Of a stretch of 25,810 nucleotides of DNA, positions 671 to 14,459 are shown one piece after another (positions within the stretch are counted from its first letter, which is position 1; the number at the start of each line of letters is the position of its first letter). Where the stretch lies: positions 1 to 25,810 of the IMG/VR virus record IMGVR_UViG_3300010389_000113; one strand, written 5' to 3'. Source of the stretch: a virus. Position numbers and translations under genes: made by a program. A model generated the notes under the pieces. That model saw nothing but the letters and a program-made list of their open reading frames with translations, made no database searches and had not been told where the DNA came from.

Positions 671-1300
671 TCATTTGTTAATGCTATAAATTGAATTATC
701 GCCAGGATAATCATCCGATGATTGTCCTTCATATTCAACTATTAATTTTTCACCGTCCGCTCTCTCTGCATGAACCAAAAAGAAGCAGTCAATTTTAGAT
801 GCGGATCCAGATCTTATTTTTACTTTAGATCCCCAATCAATAGAATCAACAATCAAGTCTTGAGATGAACCTATCTGAGTAAGAGTGACTGTGATTGTTT
901 CTGGATCAACTAACCCTTTCCAATAATCTGGAAGATTTATAATATTGGAATCGGTGAGTCTTCCACGATAGTAAACACCAGATTCTGGACCTTCTAAACA
1001 TACATGACGAAGCCTCCATCCTTCTTTAGTTGGATGAGGAATGTCAAATGGTTTTCTTGAGGTTAGAGTGATTCCACTCGCTATTACCTCTGTTGCTGTT
1101 ACAGTTCCACCACAATCAATACTACCTTCAACAACAGAATTACCTTCTAATAATCCATTCGTGAGGTGATATGAAATTGCATTACAGCAATCTGCTTCAA
1201 GATCATCTGCTCGACCAAAAATTTCATCTTGTTTCCATCTACTTCCACCGCAACCTACATCCTGTTCAGGATATAGACCTTGACATCCTCCATGTGGCAT
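671..1300 (-). CDS. Fibre-like virion protein A (paralogue of next upstream gene)
   Basis: A 209-aa protein with two parts. The N-terminal third is rich in glycine and cysteine (MPHGGCQGLYPEQDVGCGG), followed by short beta-like repeats. The C-terminal domain (about residues 83-195) contains FDIPHPTKEGWRLRHVCLEG, then YYRGRL, NLPDYWKGLVDPETITVTL and a strand-rich tail ending near LIVEYEG. The same domain order is seen in the neighbouring gene at 1311-2012 (LRYTCIEGP, VFVRGKL, LPDEWDWL, SITVSLTPIG, ERAD). I know this domain as a recurrent C-terminal module of tail-fibre or decoration-type structural proteins in marine T4-like phages. It is the last gene of the late tail block. The start is the ATG at 1300, with a strong AGGAGG site 6 nt upstream. 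The exact location in the virion is not determinable. Confidence 0.68.
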   Translation of the reverse strand: MPHGGCQGLYPEQDVGCGGSRWKQDEIFGRADDLEADCCNAISYHLTNGLLEGNSVVEGSIDCGGTVTATEVIASGITLTSRKPFDIPHPTKEGWRLRHVCLEGPESGVYYRGRLTDSNIINLPDYWKGLVDPETITVTLTQIGSSQDLIVDSIDWGSKVKIRSGSASKIDCFFLVHAERADGEKLIVEYEGQSSDDYPGDNSIYSINK

Positions 1301-1310
1301 AATTTACCTC

Positions 1311-2012
1311 CTATTGTCCAACAAATTTATCAGAGAGAAGATCTTCTTCAGGGAAAACATTGGGTTCTCTAGGTGTATCTGCCCTTTCCCCATAGATCGT
1401 ATAGTAACAATTGATCGGCATTGCAGAATGAGAATCAATAATGACATCTAATCCTTGAATTCCTTTCACAAATAAAACTTGAGGTGCTCCGATTGGAGTA
1501 AGACTCACAGTGATTGAGTCTTTATGCACCAACCAATCCCACTCATCTGGTAATCTAATTGTATTGTTACCAGACAACTTACCACGAACAAAAACGTCCT
1601 TTGTAGGACCTTCGATGCAGGTATACCGAAGTTTGTATCCTGGTTTGGTTGCATGATCAATTACAAAGTTGCAACTTCCTTTGTTGATTGCAGAAATAAA
1701 TGCTCGTCTTGCATTGATTTTATCAGCAACCAAAGTTTTAGTCTTGGTTTCTTGCTCTACCCAAAGATTGTCACGAATGTGTTCATCATCTTTGACTTCA
1801 AGAGCAAAAGAACCTTTCTGTTCTTCACTCTTATTGATCATCACGGTTCCTTCCATGAGACCAAATTTATCAGGCGCTCCTACATGAAGACCATTTTCAA
1901 TGTAGGCGCTACCTAAAACTTTTTCCTCATCAGCTTTACCAACAGATGTGGATGTCCTTCCACCAATCACATGTTGTTTATGAGTTTGTCCGTCATCAAA
2001 TGTCCAAGCCAT
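1311..2012 (-). CDS. Fibre-like virion protein B
   Basis: A 233-aa protein paralogous to the next gene downstream. After an N-terminal region with KQHVIGGRTSTSVG and beta-like repeats, residues about 110-210 carry the shared C-terminal domain: NFVIDHATKPGYKLRYTCIEG, VFVRGKL, IRLPDEWDWLVHKDSITVSL, YYTIYGERAD. The middle part (residues about 45-105) reads like triple-helix or beta-helix fibre segments (GSAYIENGLHVG, GTVMINKSEEQKGSFALEVK). It differs from the partner gene outside the shared domain, which suggests an old duplication with divergence of the N-terminal (attachment) part. The genes are 10 nt apart and co-directional, and the gp5-associated gene lies 3 nt upstream. A role as a short baseplate or tail spike or fibre is inferred from context. 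Confidence 0.66.
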   Translation of the reverse strand: MAWTFDDGQTHKQHVIGGRTSTSVGKADEEKVLGSAYIENGLHVGAPDKFGLMEGTVMINKSEEQKGSFALEVKDDEHIRDNLWVEQETKTKTLVADKINARRAFISAINKGSCNFVIDHATKPGYKLRYTCIEGPTKDVFVRGKLSGNNTIRLPDEWDWLVHKDSITVSLTPIGAPQVLFVKGIQGLDVIIDSHSAMPINCYYTIYGERADTPREPNVFPEEDLLSDKFVGQ

Positions 2013-2015
2013 AAA

Positions 2016-2576
2016 TCACTCCACAATTGGTTTTTCTTGAGATGTTCCTCTTTTACCATATCTAGAGGACGCAGATTGACATACACCTTGAGAGGCATAT
2101 ACGCCCATTGATCCATTAGATTTGATTTCCATTTTATTTTCACTATTCAATTCACACTTTTGTTTACCGTTAATAATAACTTCTGGAGAATTCATTTCAA
2201 TTTTTGAATTAGATTTGAGGGTAATGACACCATCTTTACCATTTCCTCCTTTTGCCTCAATCGTTACATTCTTTCCTTGAATTTCAACATCACCTGTCTG
2301 ACAAGTCAAACAAAGTTTTCCATTCTCAACTTGAATATTGAATGTAATGTCTGGTCTCGTTTTATCTTGACCACATTTGATGATGATTCCTCCAGGAGAC
2401 TCAAGAGTAGTAACTCCTTTTCTTGGATCATCAATATCCATGTAAAGTCTGTGGCGGGCATCTTGTTTGTTTCCAAGATATACTGCCGCTCTTACATTAT
2501 CTGGATCTAGAATTCCAAAATTGAGTTGACCATAATTATTTTCACTCCAACTAGTGAAGTCATTATTCTTAGACAT
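2016..2576 (-). CDS. Beta-rich baseplate/needle accessory protein
   Basis: A 186-aa protein directly downstream of gp5, overlapping it by 8 nt. Residues about 50-165 are a run of short strands with alternating hydrophobic residues (VENGKLCLTCQTGDVEIQGK, NVTIEAKGG, VITLKSNSKIEMNSPEVIIN, KCELNSENKMEIKSNGSMGV). This resembles the repeats of the gp5 C-terminal prism and VgrG-type beta-helices. The N-terminus (FTSWSENNYGQLNFGILDP) may be a docking segment. It may extend or decorate the central spike made by gp5, which here ends in a different kind of sequence. No enzyme motif is seen. I do not recognise a named family, so the spike role rests on position and repeat character. Confidence 0.6.
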   Translation of the reverse strand: MSKNNDFTSWSENNYGQLNFGILDPDNVRAAVYLGNKQDARHRLYMDIDDPRKGVTTLESPGGIIIKCGQDKTRPDITFNIQVENGKLCLTCQTGDVEIQGKNVTIEAKGGNGKDGVITLKSNSKIEMNSPEVIINGKQKCELNSENKMEIKSNGSMGVYASQGVCQSASSRYGKRGTSQEKPIVE

Positions 2577-5500
2577 TAATCTTACCTACACAATCAACAA
2601 CGCTAATGATTTGATCTTGAGTAACTTGATCCAGAACTTGTTGGATATTATCTCTTCCTCTATACTTGATTCTGAGATATGGTGTAAGTTTAGCACCAGC
2701 ACCAGTCTTAGTATTTATAGTGACTGTAGGGACATTGGTAAATCCAAGTCCTCTTTGGTCATCGGGAATTTTTACATCAAGTATAGATCCATTGACGGAA
2801 AGAACAGGTTGAAGTGTGAGAGTATTACCGTCACCAGTGACAGTAATTGTATCTCCATTATTATATGAAATTCCTGTTTTGTCAACATTTATCTCATCCA
2901 ACTCCATCACTACAGGATAATCTAGAGGATCAGAAACCACAAAATTGATGGTAAGATCAACTGTGGCAGTAGCATCTCCTAAAACATTATCAGATAATAT
3001 TATACTAGTACCAACTATATCTACGATAGTTGTATTGAATGGTAATGATAATCCACCTGGTCCTAGATTCCTATCTGAAATTCTAGTGGTGGTTGTACTA
3101 TATGAAGGGGTTTCGATAGAACCAGTTCCGCCAGTTATAGTTCCGCTAGAAATTACAGGATTACCATTTGAAGTTACTGGACTTCCACCAACTCCACCAA
3201 CAGTTACAGGAGTACCTCCAATTCCACCAGCAGTTAAAGGAATTCCATTGGAAGTTACAGGATCACCTCCAGCAGTTATAGGAGTTCCTCCGACTCCACC
3301 AACAGTTACAGGATCACCTCCAGCAGTTACAGGAGTGCCTCCAACTGCACCCGAAACTAAGGGAATACCATCTGTGCCACCAGCAGTTACAGGATCGCCA
3401 CCAGCAGTTACAGGATCGCCACCAGCAGTTACAGGAGTGCTACCACCAGTTGCAAGAGTAGATCCAACTATGGGAGTTCCAGTTGGTCTTGTAGATGTAA
3501 TAACAGGGATTATTTCAACTAGAGATCCAATACGAATATTTTCAATATCAGATATATTAGAAATAGTATTGCGACCACCAGTAGCAATACCAGATACAAC
3601 CTTAGATCCTTTAACTGGATTTGGAGTAATGATACTCGTTTCTGTTGTTATTGTAAACCCATTTCCATCTGTAAGTCCCTTACCAGTAGTAATACCACTA
3701 ACAGAATTGCCATTTTGATCAACCGTTCCTTCAGGAAGAACAACAGATCCACCAGATGGTATAAAAATAGTTGATCCTGAAGGTGCAGTGACACTTTTAT
3801 TTGGTTTTATAGCAATCTGTTCTCCATCCTCTGTTCTAACGATAGTTTGAGTAGAATCTGCAAAGACTTGCCCACTCGCACCAACAGAACCATCAGGTGC
3901 TGGAAGATATCCAGTTCCTGGTTCATCAATAACAACTTTATTAATTGACCCATCATCATTTAGTATTACTCTTCCAGATGCTCCACCTCCAGTTCCACAA
4001 TTACTGTTGAAGTTGACTGATGGAACACTATTATAGATTGCATTCAAGGCATCACTTCCATCTAGATCCACACCAATAATATTTCCTGCTTGATTGACAA
4101 TCGTATTAACTTTAGTTTCAACAATACCACCACCAAAAATAACAGCAAGAGGAGGTTCACAAGTGTCTGCAAATGGATTACAAGATTGAAGTGCATCTAA
4201 AGCTTGACCTGGTATTCCTGCTATCGTTTCCACAGCATTAGCAGCGGAATCAATGGCACCTTGAACGGAACCAACAACATTACTTCCCGCTTCAAGTAAA
4301 GATCCTATTGGTTCTGGTACAAAGGATCCACCACCTAAAGCTTTGCTAACTAAACCTAGAAAATCACTTGGTTTTTCTGACTGATTACCATATAGAGCAT
4401 TGAACTGAGAAATTTCTGTGCATTCAGTCTCTTCTTTACAAGTAAACAATGCCTTGAGAGCTGCTAAGAAGTCTGCTGCCATCATCAGTGGCAACTTGAT
4501 AGCACCAATTGCACCAAGAAGACTATCTAAAACCCCAGTAATAGAATCAAGAATTCCATTTACTGCATCAAGAGCAGTGCTGAGCATATTACCAATAACA
4601 TCATTGATAATACAATCAAGTGCTCCTGTAACTTTGCCAATCATATCCTGAAGAAGACCATTCAAGGTATCTTCAAGTCCACCAATTATATTTTCAAACA
4701 AACATCCAAGACCCTCTAAAGCATCGTCGAGAGTATCCTTGAAGTCTCCCATCTTATCAATGGGAAGTTTGATAGAAAGTTTTGCTGCTCTTTCAGCAAC
4801 CTCTTTAGTCATAACACCACGGACTCTCTCCATAATGTCTTTCACATATGCAGCAATACCATCCTTTGCTCTTGCTATTTCATTTTGAATATTGTTTACC
4901 TTTAGATTGATAGGATCTAAAAATATACCCTGCTGTTTTTGAATGAAAGCAACTTGTTTTTGAAGTCTTCTCAGAACAAGGTTGATTCCTTCTCCAGGAT
5001 TATCATCAGCACATTTTTGAGATGGTTTTGTTTCACCTGTATTTTTCATATTCTCATGCGCTTGATAAGTGCCATGATCATTCACATCCCTCTGAGGATT
5101 TTCTGCTACGGCACTTTCAGTTGCAAGAGTTGGTGCTATCTTTGTTCCACCGCCACCCGCTGCACTATTTCCACCAGTTGAAACAGGTGGAGATGAAGTA
5201 TCTGTTGTTCCAGGTGCTCCATCCTTTTTTATATTATGAGTAGACTCAACTAATCCATTAGTATAACCCTGAAAAGGAGTGAAACCAATTCTGGGTATTT
5301 CTTTACCAAAGTTTAGTTGACTTGACTTATCAAGCACACCCATAATAATAGGTTGCTGGGCATCTTCGCCATCCAGGAAGAAACCAAATACAAATTCTCC
5401 ACCAGAAAAATTCACACTCTGGGACATTCCTCCCATAGATCCACCAGCAGTCACAGGCATCATGCAATATGCCCATGGCAAATCATTATCAGAAAGTGCC

Positions 5501-5694
5501 GTGGTATCAGCAGTGTGATACCCCATGATACGAACTTTCACTCTGCGTTTGAATCCAGGTAAGTCTGATTGACTACCTACAGGAAGTTCTGGTGAATTAC
5601 GTTTCCAAGTGTTTGAGTCAACTACCTGCCCAATCCACCAAAAGAAACCATCACGACCTACAAAATTTTTCTTTAGTAAAGATTCTTCAATCAT
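2569..5694 (-). CDS. gp5: Baseplate hub spike protein gp5-like (no lysozyme domain seen)
   Basis: A 1041-aa protein. Residues about 1-135 match the gp5/VgrG OB-fold: FFWWIGQVVDS, a segment with GFKRRVKVRIMGYH, DLPWAYCMMPVT, and GEFVFGFFLDGEDAQQPIIM followed by GVLD. T4 gp5 continues into a lysozyme domain; I find no such domain here. Instead there is a Ser/Gly/Thr linker (150-230), then a long, mostly helical, hydrophobic region (240-430) with regular leucine/isoleucine spacing such as ALDCIINDVIGNMLSTALDA. A glycine/valine beta-rich region follows, with a low-complexity repeat at about 750-850 built on PVTAGGD units. The C-terminal domain is strand-rich (VTVTGDGNTLTLQPVLSVNG-like). The protein is almost twice as long as T4 gp5. 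The start ATG overlaps the upstream CP12-like stop as TAATG, which implies coupled translation. It should form the trimeric spike at the tail tip with the gp27-like protein. Confidence 0.85.
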   Translation of the reverse strand: MIEESLLKKNFVGRDGFFWWIGQVVDSNTWKRNSPELPVGSQSDLPGFKRRVKVRIMGYHTADTTALSDNDLPWAYCMMPVTAGGSMGGMSQSVNFSGGEFVFGFFLDGEDAQQPIIMGVLDKSSQLNFGKEIPRIGFTPFQGYTNGLVESTHNIKKDGAPGTTDTSSPPVSTGGNSAAGGGGTKIAPTLATESAVAENPQRDVNDHGTYQAHENMKNTGETKPSQKCADDNPGEGINLVLRRLQKQVAFIQKQQGIFLDPINLKVNNIQNEIARAKDGIAAYVKDIMERVRGVMTKEVAERAAKLSIKLPIDKMGDFKDTLDDALEGLGCLFENIIGGLEDTLNGLLQDMIGKVTGALDCIINDVIGNMLSTALDAVNGILDSITGVLDSLLGAIGAIKLPLMMAADFLAALKALFTCKEETECTEISQFNALYGNQSEKPSDFLGLVSKALGGGSFVPEPIGSLLEAGSNVVGSVQGAIDSAANAVETIAGIPGQALDALQSCNPFADTCEPPLAVIFGGGIVETKVNTIVNQAGNIIGVDLDGSDALNAIYNSVPSVNFNSNCGTGGGASGRVILNDDGSINKVVIDEPGTGYLPAPDGSVGASGQVFADSTQTIVRTEDGEQIAIKPNKSVTAPSGSTIFIPSGGSVVLPEGTVDQNGNSVSGITTGKGLTDGNGFTITTETSIITPNPVKGSKVVSGIATGGRNTISNISDIENIRIGSLVEIIPVITSTRPTGTPIVGSTLATGGSTPVTAGGDPVTAGGDPVTAGGTDGIPLVSGAVGGTPVTAGGDPVTVGGVGGTPITAGGDPVTSNGIPLTAGGIGGTPVTVGGVGGSPVTSNGNPVISSGTITGGTGSIETPSYSTTTTRISDRNLGPGGLSLPFNTTIVDIVGTSIILSDNVLGDATATVDLTINFVVSDPLDYPVVMELDEINVDKTGISYNNGDTITVTGDGNTLTLQPVLSVNGSILDVKIPDDQRGLGFTNVPTVTINTKTGAGAKLTPYLRIKYRGRDNIQQVLDQVTQDQIISVVDCVGKINV
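2712..2719 (-). promoter_or_regulatory. Possible internal T4-type late promoter in gp5
   Basis: The minus strand reads CTATAAATACT, an exact match to the T4 late -10 box TATAAATA. It lies inside the last 150 nt of gp5 and would start transcription near 2705, ahead of the accessory and fibre-like genes. A bare ATAAATA string is expected several times by chance in this AT-rich window, so position and the full octamer are the only support. Confidence 0.35.
3377..3439 (-). repeat. 21-bp tandem repeat inside gp5
   Basis: Three head-to-tail 21-bp units starting CCACCAGCAGTTACAGGATCG on the plus strand (3377-3397, 3398-3418, 3419-3439). The first two are identical and the third differs only at its end. 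They encode seven-residue units of the type DPVTAGG. Diverged units (GGTPVTAGG, GGVGGTP, NGIPLTAGG) extend the array over about 3120-3460. The near-identity of the central copies points to recent slippage or recombination. Confidence 0.85.
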
Positions 5695-10369: not shown

Positions 10370-13300
10370 TTATCCGACAATATTATGCATTGCTTTCATA
10401 CCAATCATACTCTTATTGTTTGGATCAATACTTCCAATTCTAGGAATATCATTAGACACTCCTGGATTTGGTCCAGGAGCTCCTGGTTGTCCAGTTGGAA
10501 CACCAAGAGTCGGTGTAACTTTCTGTATGTCACTAGGAGTTGCACCAAAAACTTCTTGGTACAACTTCATAGTTTCCTGCATGTACTGAATTGGATTTAT
10601 TTGTTGCTCTTGTTCTATATTAGTGGACATGCCTTCATTATTAGTATCAGTGCTCTGAGACTGTCCACTTACACTATCAGAAGTTGTTCCAAATGTAGGT
10701 TTACCTGAAGTAATAAAGTTTATGAAAGCTTCATGACCTGCAGGTTCGGCATCTAAATGCAAATGGTCAACAGCAGTACCAGTTTTACCTTGTGTTCCTA
10801 TAATAGTACCCGCTTTGATCTGTTGTCCTTGAGAAATATTGCCATATTTACTCAAATGAGCGAATAGCATTCTGCCCGTGGTATTTTTTACTATGACAGT
10901 ATTGCCATATCCACCCGCAGGTCCTTTGAATATAACCTCAGAGTCTAAGGGGACTGGAATATCGGCATTGGGAGAGGAAGATAAATTTGTGCCGTGTAAA
11001 ATTGTATAATCCCTAGGCCACCCATCAGTTCTTTTGGCATTCTTTCCAACACCAGGAGAAGCACCATGATGCCAAAGTGTATCGGAAAACTTATATGTTG
11101 TTCCAGAATAAAGAGGTTTATTAGTCCGACCATCATTTGTGCTAAAGTATTTAATTTTTCCACCACCCATCTGACCACCACCTTGAGCATAAACAGTATC
11201 TCTAATGATTTTTGGTTTATTATTTCCACCACCTGCAGCATTCATCTTTGCAAGAGTATCTGAACCATACTTCTTCACTGCTCCCTTAGACATGACAAAC
11301 TCGCCAGGTTCCAACATGGCACGGATTCTATCTCCTCCACCATATCCACCACGAACTTTACCACCACCAGAGTATTGAATTGATTCACCTCTGAGGTTCA
11401 TACTCTCGTTGGCACCAGACATTCCAGCATCTTGCATTGCTGCTCTTAGATTGTCATAATACTGCTGCTGCTTTGTTGCTACTCCAGCAGCACTTTCTAC
11501 AAGAGGACTATAGGAACTTCCGCCAGGTAGTTGAGTGACTTCTCTGGCATTCTGTATTGCTGCATCAAGTCTTTGATTACCAGTTCCAGATGTACGTGTT
11601 ACAAGTTGAGGAAGAGTTCCACCTGTGTTTACAAACTGTTTATTTCGATTAGCACCTTCATATTTTCTCATCTGTGGTTGAGAATATCCAGTCCCATATC
11701 CACTAGAATCTCTTGGAAAGGTTGGTTTTCCGACAGGAATTCCTAAGAACTTATTCTGATATCCAGCAACAGTTTGATTGCCAACTGTCTTGGGTGCCAT
11801 TACTGTTCCTGTTCCTGGTAAAAATCTACCAAGAGTATTCAGGAAACCACCACCCTGCATAGCAACTGAAGAATTTGCATATGAATTATTAGTATTAGTT
11901 ACTAAACCACCACCCTGCATAGCAACTGAAGAATTTGCATATGAATTGTTAGTATTAGTTACTAAACCACCATTGCTCATAGCAACTAATGGTTCTATTG
12001 GGGTAACTAAACCACCACCACTTATACCCTGTAACAATCCATAAGGTGTTGTTGGACCCATATCACCAGGACCACCAACACCCTGAAGTCCAACACTTTT
12101 TCCTGTCTGTGCTTTTGCTTTGTTATCTGCTTGAGTACCAGATGCTTTACGTTGTCCAGTTACTTCATTAGCAAGTATAGCAGCACCTGCAACACCTGCA
12201 CCAACACCAATAATTTTTGCAGCTGGTGTAGCAGCCGCTGCTCTTAGTCCAGTCGCTGCACCCTTTATACCTGCGCCAGGTTTGCGTAAGAACTTGAGTC
12301 CTTTTGCTCCAAGTTTGAGTGCTAATTTTCCTGCTGCTTTTATGAGATCAAAAGTCATTTTGATCATCTTAGGAACAAACTTGAATGCAATCTTCATCAA
12401 GAACATTACAATTCCATTCAACCTTGTTCCAAACAACAAGAGACCACCGACGATCAATAACCAATGTCGTCTAAAGAACTTGATGACTCTGTTTAGTTTC
12501 TCAGCATTTCCTGGTTCAGAATACCAGTCAATCAGTTTCATTCCAACCTTAGCAAATAGGATCTTTCCTATCGCATCCATTATTTGTTGGAACACATTCT
12601 GTATGGGTGCTATTATCTTTTGAGCTGGACCCGCTAAGAAATTTCTTAGACCCTCTAATCTATTTTCTTTTTCTTCTCTCTTTGTTTTTTCTTTTTCTTT
12701 TCTATCTTTATCAGCAACAGCCTTTTCATACTTACCAGTATCTCTTACTTCTTTTAGAAGTCCATCAATCTTATCTAAGATACTATCAAGACCTTCCTCA
12801 ACTTCATCTTTTGTTACTACTTGCTTCTCAACCTTCTTTTCAATGTCCTCTGGTTTGAGATCATCTGCACTAATTGGTGGTTGATATTTTACAATTGCAC
12901 TCGTCGCAGTTCCAGGCAATAATCCTTTGGTCGGAACAGATGGTCCTCCAGTTCCTCCACCAGCTGCTGCTTTCTTCTCAAGAAGATTGTCTACAAAATT
13001 TTTAAAATCTATTTTGCTACGTCTTTTTTTGAATGCCTCCTTTCTTTCTGATGCAGAAAGAGGTCTGCCATCGATAGTACCCTGAGCCGTTAGTTCAGCA
13101 ACATATCTTTCATATCTTTCTTCACCAAAAAATTTAGAGGCAACAATTGCTCTAGACTTTGGTTTTGAATCTTCTTTCTTTATACTTTCTATTAGATCAT
13201 CCAAACCTAATGGAATCTCAGACTCTGTTTCAGACGGTTCTGGAACAGATTCAGTAGTTTTGTTTAGATACTCCTTTACCAACCACTTCTGATATGGCTC

Positions 13301-13561
13301 TTCGTTGTATGCACCACCAGTTTTACCAGTTTGATTTAGTTTTGGATAATGACCAGACTTCTTGATGTTTTCAATCAACTTATCAGCATCAGCATCACTC
13401 AGTCTCACATAAGATGTAAACTGTTGATTACTCAACTCTGGAATTCTTCTCCCAGTAAGTTGTCCTTTAAGTTTATACCAAACTGCAGGACCAATTTGCC
13501 CCAATGGCCACCATGGTTGTTGTGGATCTAGTATTCCTTCTGGTGGCTGGGGAAGATTCAT
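10370..13561 (-). CDS. Tape-measure-like tail protein with M23-like domain
   Basis: A 1063-aa protein. Residues about 255-310 are a charged coiled-coil region (DRKEKEKTKREEKENRLEGL). Residues 310-465 are hydrophobic helices (HWLLIVGGLLLFGTRLNGIV; IIGVGAGVAGAAILANEV). Residues about 520-580 are GGLVT repeats. Residues about 744-780 carry the segment RIRAMLEPGEFVMSKGAVKK followed by YGSDTLAKMNAAGGG, a motif I associate with phage tape-measure proteins. Residues about 815-950 resemble an M23 peptidase: NADIPVPLDSEV (near 866), GGYGNTVIVK, LFAHLSKYGNISQGQQIKAG (near 900) and DHLHL (near 930). The canonical first Zn ligand, the His of H-x-x-x-D, is replaced by Ser, so activity is doubtful. Gene order (tail chaperone pair just upstream) also fits a tape measure. 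If fully helical, about 1060 residues would span roughly 160 nm at 1.5 angstrom per residue. Confidence 0.7.
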   Translation of the reverse strand: MNLPQPPEGILDPQQPWWPLGQIGPAVWYKLKGQLTGRRIPELSNQQFTSYVRLSDADADKLIENIKKSGHYPKLNQTGKTGGAYNEEPYQKWLVKEYLNKTTESVPEPSETESEIPLGLDDLIESIKKEDSKPKSRAIVASKFFGEERYERYVAELTAQGTIDGRPLSASERKEAFKKRRSKIDFKNFVDNLLEKKAAAGGGTGGPSVPTKGLLPGTATSAIVKYQPPISADDLKPEDIEKKVEKQVVTKDEVEEGLDSILDKIDGLLKEVRDTGKYEKAVADKDRKEKEKTKREEKENRLEGLRNFLAGPAQKIIAPIQNVFQQIMDAIGKILFAKVGMKLIDWYSEPGNAEKLNRVIKFFRRHWLLIVGGLLLFGTRLNGIVMFLMKIAFKFVPKMIKMTFDLIKAAGKLALKLGAKGLKFLRKPGAGIKGAATGLRAAAATPAAKIIGVGAGVAGAAILANEVTGQRKASGTQADNKAKAQTGKSVGLQGVGGPGDMGPTTPYGLLQGISGGGLVTPIEPLVAMSNGGLVTNTNNSYANSSVAMQGGGLVTNTNNSYANSSVAMQGGGFLNTLGRFLPGTGTVMAPKTVGNQTVAGYQNKFLGIPVGKPTFPRDSSGYGTGYSQPQMRKYEGANRNKQFVNTGGTLPQLVTRTSGTGNQRLDAAIQNAREVTQLPGGSSYSPLVESAAGVATKQQQYYDNLRAAMQDAGMSGANESMNLRGESIQYSGGGKVRGGYGGGDRIRAMLEPGEFVMSKGAVKKYGSDTLAKMNAAGGGNNKPKIIRDTVYAQGGGQMGGGKIKYFSTNDGRTNKPLYSGTTYKFSDTLWHHGASPGVGKNAKRTDGWPRDYTILHGTNLSSSPNADIPVPLDSEVIFKGPAGGYGNTVIVKNTTGRMLFAHLSKYGNISQGQQIKAGTIIGTQGKTGTAVDHLHLDAEPAGHEAFINFITSGKPTFGTTSDSVSGQSQSTDTNNEGMSTNIEQEQQINPIQYMQETMKLYQEVFGATPSDIQKVTPTLGVPTGQPGAPGPNPGVSNDIPRIGSIDPNNKSMIGMKAMHNIVG
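11845..11964 (-). repeat. 60-bp tandem duplication in tape-measure-like gene
   Basis: Two adjacent 60-bp units (11845-11904 and 11905-11964) differ at a single base (A at 11888 against G at 11948), and the first bases of a third unit follow. Each encodes 20 residues containing GGLVTNTNNSYANSSVAMQG. Further diverged GGLVT units flank the pair. The change between copies is synonymous (third codon position). This indicates a recent in-frame duplication. Confidence 0.92.
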
Positions 13562-13563
13562 TT

Positions 13564-13740
13564 CTATTGTTGCTGCTGTTGCTGCTTTGCCTTTTCTTCT
13601 TCTATATGCTGTTTCAATAATTCAACATAGATGTCCCTTTCCCAAGGCATCATGTTTTCAACCTCAGTCAAAGAGTATTTATGGTACTGCATCAAGGCAA
13701 AATTAATCCTGAAGTAAACTTCAAGATTCATATGCGACAT
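13564..13740 (-). CDS. 58-aa tail chaperone-like ORF, probably expressed as gp26 frameshift product
   Basis: This short ORF encodes 58 aa: MSHMNLEVYFRINFALMQYH, then HKYSLTEVENMMPWERDIYV, then ELLKQHIEEEK and a glutamine-rich end encoded by CAG/CAA repeats. The 'MMPWERxIYxELL' segment with a following acidic helix is typical of the second partner of tail-tape-measure chaperone pairs (compare the T part of lambda gpGT). It starts 2 nt after the gp26 stop and lies in the -1 frame relative to gp26. No Shine-Dalgarno sequence precedes its ATG. A slippery heptamer sits just before the gp26 stop (see 13749-13755). It may therefore be made only as a gp26 fusion, by re-initiation, or both. It ends 2 nt before the start of the tape-measure-like gene. 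The coding assignment is strong because the reading frame and motif are coherent; the expression route is inference. Confidence 0.75.
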   Translation of the reverse strand: MSHMNLEVYFRINFALMQYHKYSLTEVENMMPWERDIYVELLKQHIEEEKAKQQQQQQ

Positions 13741-13742
13741 CG

Positions 13743-14459
13743 CTAGGCGAAAAAACTTGAGATGCCCTCCAGTACAACCTCGTTCTTCTTCTTGGTATTT
13801 GGATTCGTGACAGTAATCTTATAAGAAAGTTTAGGCATTGTTGAGAAGAAAGTCTCGATGTCCTTGAACTGAGAAGTATTCAGTTGCTCCAAGAACTCCA
13901 TCAATTCTTTCTTGGTCACATCGGCAGCATTCCATGCCTCATCTTCATTATAAATTGTTTCCACACAAGAAGAAATAAGTTCAAAGGTCTTATCAATTCC
14001 ACCAACATCATTCATATCAAAGTTCTCAGACACAAACTGTTCAAGAGAAGGATACTTCATTCTCATTACCAGATTATCATCAAGTTTAATATCTTTGGTG
14101 TGTTCTGGATCTTTCTGTACTTGAATATCATCAATCGGAATAACTACTGGAACTTCAGTTACTCCATCATCAGGACAGATAATTTTTACTTCAACTTCTT
14201 CACCAACAGACTTGCCACGAATGTTGAGGAACAGATACTCAATATCAAACGTTGGCAACTCTTCGATCTTTAGTTTTGTTTTTACACAAGATCTAATGAC
14301 ATCTTTGATTGCTTTTGTAATCTGTTTTGTGTCTTGACTTTCCATTGCCAAGACAAGAATTTTTTCTTCCTTTACAAGAAAAGGTCTGTATTCAATTTCT
14401 TCCCCAGTGGATGGCAAATTCAGATTATAATACGGGGTCGCAATTTTTGGTAAAGGCAT
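13743..14459 (-). CDS. gp26: Baseplate hub subunit / tail chaperone gp26-like
   Basis: A 238-aa protein of the T4 gp26/gp51 baseplate family. The start MPLPKIATPYYNLNLPSTGE followed by YRPFLVKEEKILVLAMES is a strong family signature (lead strands, then the 'R-P-F-L-V-K-E-E-K' motif). T4 gp26 has 208 aa. The middle part has paired strands (VEVKIICPDDGVTEVPVVIP), and the C-terminal part has an acidic helix region (TSQFKDIETFFSTMPKLSYK). In T4 these proteins help assemble the hub and the tape-measure core. Here the gene precedes the 58-aa ORF and the tape-measure-like gene, the position of tail-chaperone genes in many phages. The ATG at 14459 has an AGGAG site close upstream (spacing about 3-4 nt), and a NATAAATA late box lies about 26 nt upstream. 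Confidence 0.85.
   Translation of the reverse strand: MPLPKIATPYYNLNLPSTGEEIEYRPFLVKEEKILVLAMESQDTKQITKAIKDVIRSCVKTKLKIEELPTFDIEYLFLNIRGKSVGEEVEVKIICPDDGVTEVPVVIPIDDIQVQKDPEHTKDIKLDDNLVMRMKYPSLEQFVSENFDMNDVGGIDKTFELISSCVETIYNEDEAWNAADVTKKELMEFLEQLNTSQFKDIETFFSTMPKLSYKITVTNPNTKKKNEVVLEGISSFFA
13749..13755 (-). other. Candidate -1 ribosomal frameshift site (T TTT TTC)
   Basis: On the minus strand the end of gp26 reads AGT TTT TTC GCC TAG. The heptamer T TTT TTC fits the X XXY YYZ rule. A slip of -1 changes the reading to TTT TTT CGC CTA GCG ATG and runs in frame straight into the 58-aa ORF at 13740. The site is one codon before the gp26 stop. Downstream stimulatory structure was not established by eye. 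Confidence 0.55.

What the first reader, a model, noticed from the sequence alone, without database searches (positions are those of the whole stretch)
13564..13755. Candidate programmed -1 frameshift joining gp26 to a 58-aa ORF before the tape-measure gene
T TTT TTC lies one codon before the gp26 stop. A -1 slip reads on as CGC CTA GCG ATG directly into a 58-aa ORF with the MMPWERDIYVELL motif, which has no Shine-Dalgarno sequence and starts 2 nt after the stop. Frame arithmetic was checked: gp26 and the ORF differ by exactly -1. Two overlapping products made by frameshift just upstream of the tape measure is a hallmark of tail chaperones (lambda gpG/gpGT, P2 E/E'), but I am not aware of it being described for the T4 gp26 family.
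Basis: partly seen in the sequence, partly recalled or inferred. Interest (0 to 1): 0.82.

Follow-up and report, generated by a model that had tools for sequence, protein, structure and literature searches.

The report
Frameshifted tail chaperone in T4-like cyanophage
In this marine phage and its relatives, ribosomes very probably slip back one base at the end of gene 26 and so make a longer second version of a tail-building helper protein; the slip is well supported by comparison of many genomes, but this arrangement in T4-like phages was already reported in 2022.

Summary
gp26 (13743-14459, minus strand) ends AGT TTT TTC GCC TAG. A -1 slip on T_TTT_TTC (13755-13749) reads RLA and then the 58-aa ORF (13564-13740), giving a 298-aa fusion.

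In the window alone the motif is weak evidence: resampling synonymous codons gives it 40% of the time. Comparison is decisive. Among 163 gp26 loci (under 90% DNA identity to each other), a recognisable tail lies in the -1 frame in 159, and in no other frame. 154 carry an in-phase T_TTT_TTN (60 expected). 81 of those 154 have no start codon near the slip. A GGAGG-like element sits 8-10 nt upstream of most slip sites. T4 gp51 is the same fusion in one gene: its residues 7-203 match the gp26 profile and 209-250 match the tail.

The best reading is a tail assembly chaperone made in short (gp26) and long (fusion) forms. This is not new in kind. Vladimirov, Gautam and Davidson (Virology 2022; not held here, known from two citing papers and from memory) identified these genes as T4-like tail assembly chaperones.

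Exceptions: lineages without a slippery heptamer (Ackermannviridae, Vibrio K474/D532, Pseudomonas Cygsa01), and phage S-SCSM1, where an 11-nt insertion breaks the -1 path. No product has been measured.

The parts
13743..14459 (-). gp26-family gene, 238 aa (PF12322; short form, TAC-N)
   Evidence: Pfam PF12322 E=7e-72; PHROG 150 baseplate hub E=5e-79
13765..13770 (-). Shine-Dalgarno-like GGAGGG, 9 nt before the slippery heptamer; proposed 5' frameshift stimulator
   Evidence: 139 of 154 loci have an SD-like element upstream, 138 of them at 8-10 nt spacing; the Glu codon there is GAG in 73/112 against 27% background, p=1e-16
13749..13755 (-). slippery heptamer T_TTT_TTC, in phase with gp26
   Evidence: sequence; in-phase T_TTT_TTN in 154 of 163 non-redundant loci
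13743..13745 (-). gp26 stop codon TAG, one codon after the heptamer
   Evidence: stop directly after or one codon after the heptamer in 148 of 154 loci
13564..13749 (-). -1 frame tail (RLA + 58 aa + stop); the 58-aa ORF itself is 13564-13740; C-terminal domain of the long form
   Evidence: PHROG 634 E=2e-27 over positions 60-117/121 and PHROG 150 positions 242-280/282; dN well below dS in the -1 frame against relatives
13705..13728 (-). 10-bp hairpin 20 nt after the heptamer; possible 3' stimulator, shared with the two closest relatives only
   Evidence: MFE -13.9 kcal/mol, z=-3.2; no consensus structure in the window's clade
10370..13561 (-). 1063-aa ORF with hydrophobic segments and C-terminal peptidase M23; candidate tape measure, client of the chaperone
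   Evidence: PF01551 E=1e-13; tape-measure PHROG matches confined mainly to the M23 part; the nearby downstream gene is annotated tape measure or tape-measure-like in phiM12 and RHph_I1_18

Best explanation
gp26 and the 58-aa ORF are one gene with two products. Most ribosomes stop at the gp26 TAG and make the 238-aa short form. A minority slip back one base on T_TTT_TTC, helped by the GGAGGG element 9 nt upstream pairing with 16S rRNA and perhaps by a downstream hairpin, and make a 298-aa fusion that adds RLA plus the 58-residue tail. By analogy with lambda gpG/gpGT, the short form would coat the tape measure protein and the few long forms would recruit the tail tube subunit through the tail domain. 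The T4 counterparts are gp26 (short form) and gp51 (long form), which T4 encodes as two separate genes. Shown here: frame relation, slippery motif and upstream element conserved; gp51 has the fused architecture. Inferred: that the slip occurs, how often, and the chaperone role in this phage.
For: Sequence facts. 61 of 61 relatives scored from the first viral-contig search keep a -1 tail. Of 163 non-redundant loci, 159 have a recognisable tail homologue and all 159 are in -1, including Sinorhizobium, Rhizobium, Aeromonas, Vibrio, Methylophilales and Delftia phages. 154/163 have in-phase T_TTT_TTN against 59.9 expected. 81 of 154 tails have no ATG, GTG or TTG within nine codons of the slip, so separate initiation is often not available there. 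SD-like element at 8-10 nt with strong codon bias. Downstream folding mean z=-1.48 against 0.01 upstream, both on about 60 loci; a 12-bp hairpin in the S-PM2 clade, 93.9% paired, with one C-G/U-A exchange on both sides. T4 gp51 columns 7-203 match the gp26 profile (probability 98.9, E=1e-17) and 209-250 match the tail profile (95.9, E=5e-9). The AlphaFold model of gp26 (pLDDT 87) gives the HK97 tail assembly chaperone 2ob9 as the highest-probability match among the 50 PDB hits listed (0.72; E=1.2, so suggestive only).
Against: No protein, ribosome-profiling or reporter data were available. The window's own clade has no conserved downstream structure. In S-SCSM1 an 11-nt insertion puts stops in the -1 path after the slip, and the tail has its own ATG. 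Nine divergent loci keep the -1 order without a slippery heptamer.
Confidence: 0.9

Rival explanations
1. The 58-aa ORF is made as a separate small protein by termination-reinitiation at the ATG two bases after the gp26 stop; the -1 offset only reflects tight gene packing.
For: In the window the ATG is ideally placed for reinitiation. Cygsa01, K474 and K567 have stop/start overlaps of the TAATG type. S-SCSM1 keeps an ATG with the -1 path broken.
Against: 81 of 154 loci have no start codon within nine codons of the slip and only 66 have an ATG there. Tight packing would also allow other offsets, yet 159 of 159 recognisable tails are in -1. Codon bias builds the slippery site and the upstream element. 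T4 gp51 is a fused protein.
Confidence: 0.06
2. RNA polymerase, not the ribosome, slips on the T run and makes some mRNAs with one base more or fewer, so the fusion is translated without frameshifting.
For: The site is a run of six or more T in the heptamer-bearing loci.
Against: Bacterial transcriptional slippage is typically described on runs of about nine A or T (PMC5009743). The codon phase of the run, the SD-like element at 8-10 nt and the downstream structure point to the ribosome.
Confidence: 0.03
3. The downstream hairpin at 13705-13728 is a terminator or attenuator and the slippery run is incidental.
For: The site is scored as terminator-like.
Against: Only 1 found against 0.8 expected in shuffles; it lies inside a coding region, its T tract is weak, and it is not conserved in the clade.
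Confidence: 0.01

Closest known systems
T4-like phage tail assembly chaperones, T4 gp26 (TAC-N) and gp51 (TAC-NC); Vladimirov, Gautam and Davidson, Virology 2022, 566:9-15
   Same: Same protein family (PF12322) and the same two-form architecture; gp51 = gp26-like core + tail homologous to the 58-aa ORF. Frameshifting in several T4-like groups is, from memory of its abstract, already proposed there; the paper is cited for this family.
   Different: T4 encodes the two forms as separate genes on opposite strands; the window encodes them as one frameshifting gene.
lambda gpG/gpGT and HK97 tail assembly chaperones
   Same: Short form plus a -1 frameshifted long form encoded before the tail-length gene; slippery site near the end of the short ORF (PMC5009743).
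   Different: No sequence homology found here; fold similarity to HK97 2ob9 only weak. The stop follows the slip almost at once here.
E. coli dnaX -1 frameshift cassette
   Same: SD-like element about 10 nt upstream of a heptamer with a hairpin downstream (dnaX geometry from general knowledge; shift site A_AAA_AAG in PMC5009743).
   Different: Unrelated gene, T-rich rather than A-rich heptamer, and here the frameshift product is the longer one.
Pseudomonas phage Adele (Vandenendeviridae) tail assembly chaperone, PMC12846349
   Same: Predicted -1 frameshift on a conserved T-run at the end of the short form, with the downstream ORF routinely annotated as a separate gene.
   Different: Different phage family; motif GTTTTT rather than T_TTT_TTN.

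Membership tests
T4_baseplate / gp26 family (PF12322) | profile match over the curated cut-off | tested here: met
   E=7e-72, 242 bits against cut-off 24.5
T4-like tail assembly chaperone pair (gp26/gp51) | long form = short-form core plus a C-terminal tail homologous to the gp51 end | tested here: met
   profile-profile matches of core and tail to adjacent parts of gp51; T4 gp51 matches PHROG 150 over 13-280/282
Frameshifted tail assembly chaperones (lambda G/GT type) | tail in a shifted frame reachable at a slippery site near the end of the short ORF, conserved in relatives | tested here: met
Frameshifted tail assembly chaperones (lambda G/GT type) | located directly upstream of the tape measure gene | tested here: inconclusive
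   followed by a 1063-aa ORF with M23; matches to tape-measure families mainly in the M23 part; a nearby downstream gene is called tape measure or tape-measure-like in two relatives
Frameshifted tail assembly chaperones (lambda G/GT type) | chaperone fold | tested here: inconclusive
   model pLDDT 87; HK97 2ob9 probability 0.72, E=1.2
Frameshifted tail assembly chaperones (lambda G/GT type) | both forms made in a fixed ratio and absent from the virion | not testable with these tools
   needs protein data
dnaX-like -1 frameshift cassette | SD-like stimulator about 10 nt upstream and 3' structure | tested here: inconclusive
   SD-like element met; 3' structure lineage-specific; effect not measured

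The most novel reading that the evidence does not exclude
Across the gp26 family the long form is reached by different routes: -1 slip with a dnaX-like upstream SD element and lineage-specific hairpins (Kyanoviridae and many others), gene duplication (T4), and, in lineages without a heptamer (Ackermannviridae, K474/D532, Cygsa01) or with a broken -1 path (S-SCSM1), some other route such as a non-canonical slip or a separate coupled tail peptide. The SD element as a family-wide stimulator was not found described in the literature searched here.
Probability: 0.4. Interest if true: 0.45.

Novelty: new member of a known kind. Interest (0 to 1): 0.33.

Why it matters
None of the relatives whose annotation was read here shows a joined gene. 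The tail is listed as a separate 'baseplate hub assembly catalyst', as hypothetical, or not at all (for example), so a routine correction would apply to hundreds of genomes (691 phage records match the fusion). It also gives a clear test of how T4 gp26 and gp51, long called hub chaperones of unclear function, relate to lambda-type tail chaperones.

Tried and rejected
(1) Conserved 3' structure in the window's own clade: RNAalifold gives none, so the window hairpin is only a possible stimulator. (2) Profile search of gp26 against PDB sequences: no credible relative. (3) A viral-contig search with the broad alignment A1 failed for lack of conserved stretches, and the Vibrio K567 query found nothing; single-protein queries were used instead. 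(4) A fold of gp26 without an alignment was started, was not finished, and was not collected; it was superseded by the aligned job. The 298-aa fusion was not folded, since it cannot be read from the DNA in one frame. (5) Initial statistics on T-ending codons (log10 P -32 and -24) are conditional on the motif being present; the unconditional codon-resampling test is the one to rely on. (6) Vladimirov et al. 2022 is not in the library; its content is taken from two citing papers and from memory of its abstract.

Full report
What is there. On the minus strand of the window, gp26 (13743-14459, 238 aa, PF12322) ends ...GGC ATC TCA AGT TTT TTC GCC TAG. The heptamer T_TTT_TTC (13755-13749) is in phase for a canonical -1 slip; after it the -1 frame reads CGC CTA GCG ATG and runs through the 58-aa ORF (13564-13740). 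The predicted fusion is 298 aa.

Is it more than chance? Not from this sequence alone. The protein ends in SFF and the family prefers T-ending codons; resampling synonymous codons for the last 21 codons gives an in-phase T_TTT_TTN 40% of the time. The strength lies in comparison. Viral-contig searches with the window's gp26 and with gp26 of S-PM2, Melnitz-2, Salmonella phage BSP101 and a distant locus, a search with T4 gp51, and annotated phage records gave 343 loci with a complete end of the gene; 170 remained after removing those at 90% or more DNA identity, of which 163 are gp26 proper and 7 are gp51-type genes from the T4 side. A tail homologue was recognised in 159 of the 163, in the -1 frame each time. 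The other four are a truncated contig (L189) and three divergent phages (L076-L078) whose downstream ORF is also in -1. An in-phase T_TTT_TTN occurs in 154 of 163 (59.9 expected), and in 51 of 55 lineages below 60% protein identity (20.3 expected). The tail evolves as protein in the -1 frame: against the closest relative dN 0.05, dS 0.44.

Separate gene or fusion? If the tail were an independent gene its start codon should be kept. Of 154 loci with the heptamer, 66 have an ATG within nine codons of the slip, 7 have only GTG or TTG, and 81 have none. The residues encoded between slip and ATG are conserved in type (FFR[IVL] in the window's clade). In phiM12, Bellamy and others the annotated tail gene starts at a later ATG, leaving the conserved beginning out.

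Stimulators. A Shine-Dalgarno-like element (GGAGG, GAGGG, GAAGG and similar) lies upstream of 139 of 154 heptamers, at a spacing of 8-10 nt in 138. It is built by codon choice: the Glu codon there is GAG in 73 of 112 (27% background, p=1e-16), the Gly codon is GGG or GGA in 108 of 152 (39% background, p=1.5e-15), and the preceding Leu codon ends in G in 58 of 108 (28%, p=2e-8); these loci are related, so the p-values overstate the independence. The pairing energy to the 16S 3' end has its minimum there. This resembles the geometry of the E. coli dnaX cassette. Downstream RNA is more folded than shuffled sequence (mean z -1.48, against 0.01 upstream, about 60 loci). The S-PM2 clade has a 12-bp hairpin, 93.9% of cells paired, with a C-G to U-A exchange at one pair. 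The window has a 10-bp hairpin at 13728-13705 (z=-3.2) that its two closest relatives share but its wider clade does not. It was also flagged as terminator-like, at about the chance rate. Structure is therefore lineage-specific and unproven as a stimulator in the window.

What the product is. T4 genes 26 and 51 lie on opposite strands. Both proteins match PF12322, and gp51 matches PHROG 150 along 13-280 of 282 plus PHROG 634, the family of the 58-aa ORF. Profile-profile comparison puts the gp26 family on gp51 columns 7-203 (probability 98.9, E=1e-17) and the -1 tails on 209-250 (95.9, E=5e-9). So the predicted fusion has the architecture of gp51, and gp26 that of the short form. T4 gp26 and gp51 are listed as hub assembly chaperones, with gp51 required but absent from the particle (PMC3004832). 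A short form and a long form with an extra C-terminal domain, upstream of the tail-length gene, is the lambda gpG/gpGT plan (PMC5009743). The AlphaFold model gives the HK97 tail assembly chaperone as the highest-probability listed PDB match (0.72), but at E=1.2 this is only suggestive.

Exceptions. Nine loci have no heptamer: Ackermannviridae (L079, L080, L257, L266, L267, L270), Vibrio K474 and D532, and Pseudomonas Cygsa01. The last three have a stop/start overlap (TAATG), so a separate coupled tail peptide is possible there; the Ackermannviridae keep the -1 frame (FHLIFE) without a recognised motif. In Synechococcus phage S-SCSM1 an 11-nt insertion relative to P-TIM68 places stops in the -1 path and the tail has its own ATG. 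These do not weaken the case in the window's lineage but show that the family does not depend on one solution.

Novelty. PRFect (PMC10885494) cites Vladimirov, Gautam and Davidson, Virology 2022, for T4-like phages that carry a short gene and a long fused gene instead of frameshifting, and the Adele paper (PMC12846349) cites it for poly-T slippery sequences in 'TAC-N genes of T4-like phages'. From memory, its abstract states that frameshifting is conserved in several T4-like groups while T4 uses genes 26 and 51. The paper itself could not be read here. No joined CDS was seen in the annotated records examined.

Noticed in passing
L358 1200-1245 (Synechococcus phage S-SCSM1, MK867354.2): 11-nt insertion between the gp26 stop and the tail breaks the -1 path (FFRLES**); the tail is then in the +1/-2 frame with its own ATG. 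Either a real change of strategy or a sequence or assembly error.
   Followed up: partly
L079, L080, L257, L266, L267, L270 (Ackermannviridae), at the end of gp26: -1 tail kept (FHLIFE...) but no canonical slippery heptamer; sequence [A/G]TTTTCAT[C/T]T[A/G]AT. How the tail is translated is unclear.
   Followed up: partly
L095 1501-2258 (T4-like IMG/VR contig 2974754850): gp51 homologue is split into two ORFs (1501-1863 and 1887-2258) in different frames.
   Followed up: no
window 11844-11987: 60-bp tandem repeat, 2.4 copies, 94% matches, inside the 1063-aa ORF (repeat of VTNTNNSYANSSVAMQGGGL).
   Followed up: no
window 671-2012, minus strand: Two adjacent genes (671-1300 and 1311-2012) match the same two PHROG families (28536, 17490), suggesting a tandem duplication.
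   Followed up: no
window 3172-3459: Overlapping 21-, 30-, 51- and 72-bp tandem repeats inside the 1041-aa ORF (2569-5694).
   Followed up: no
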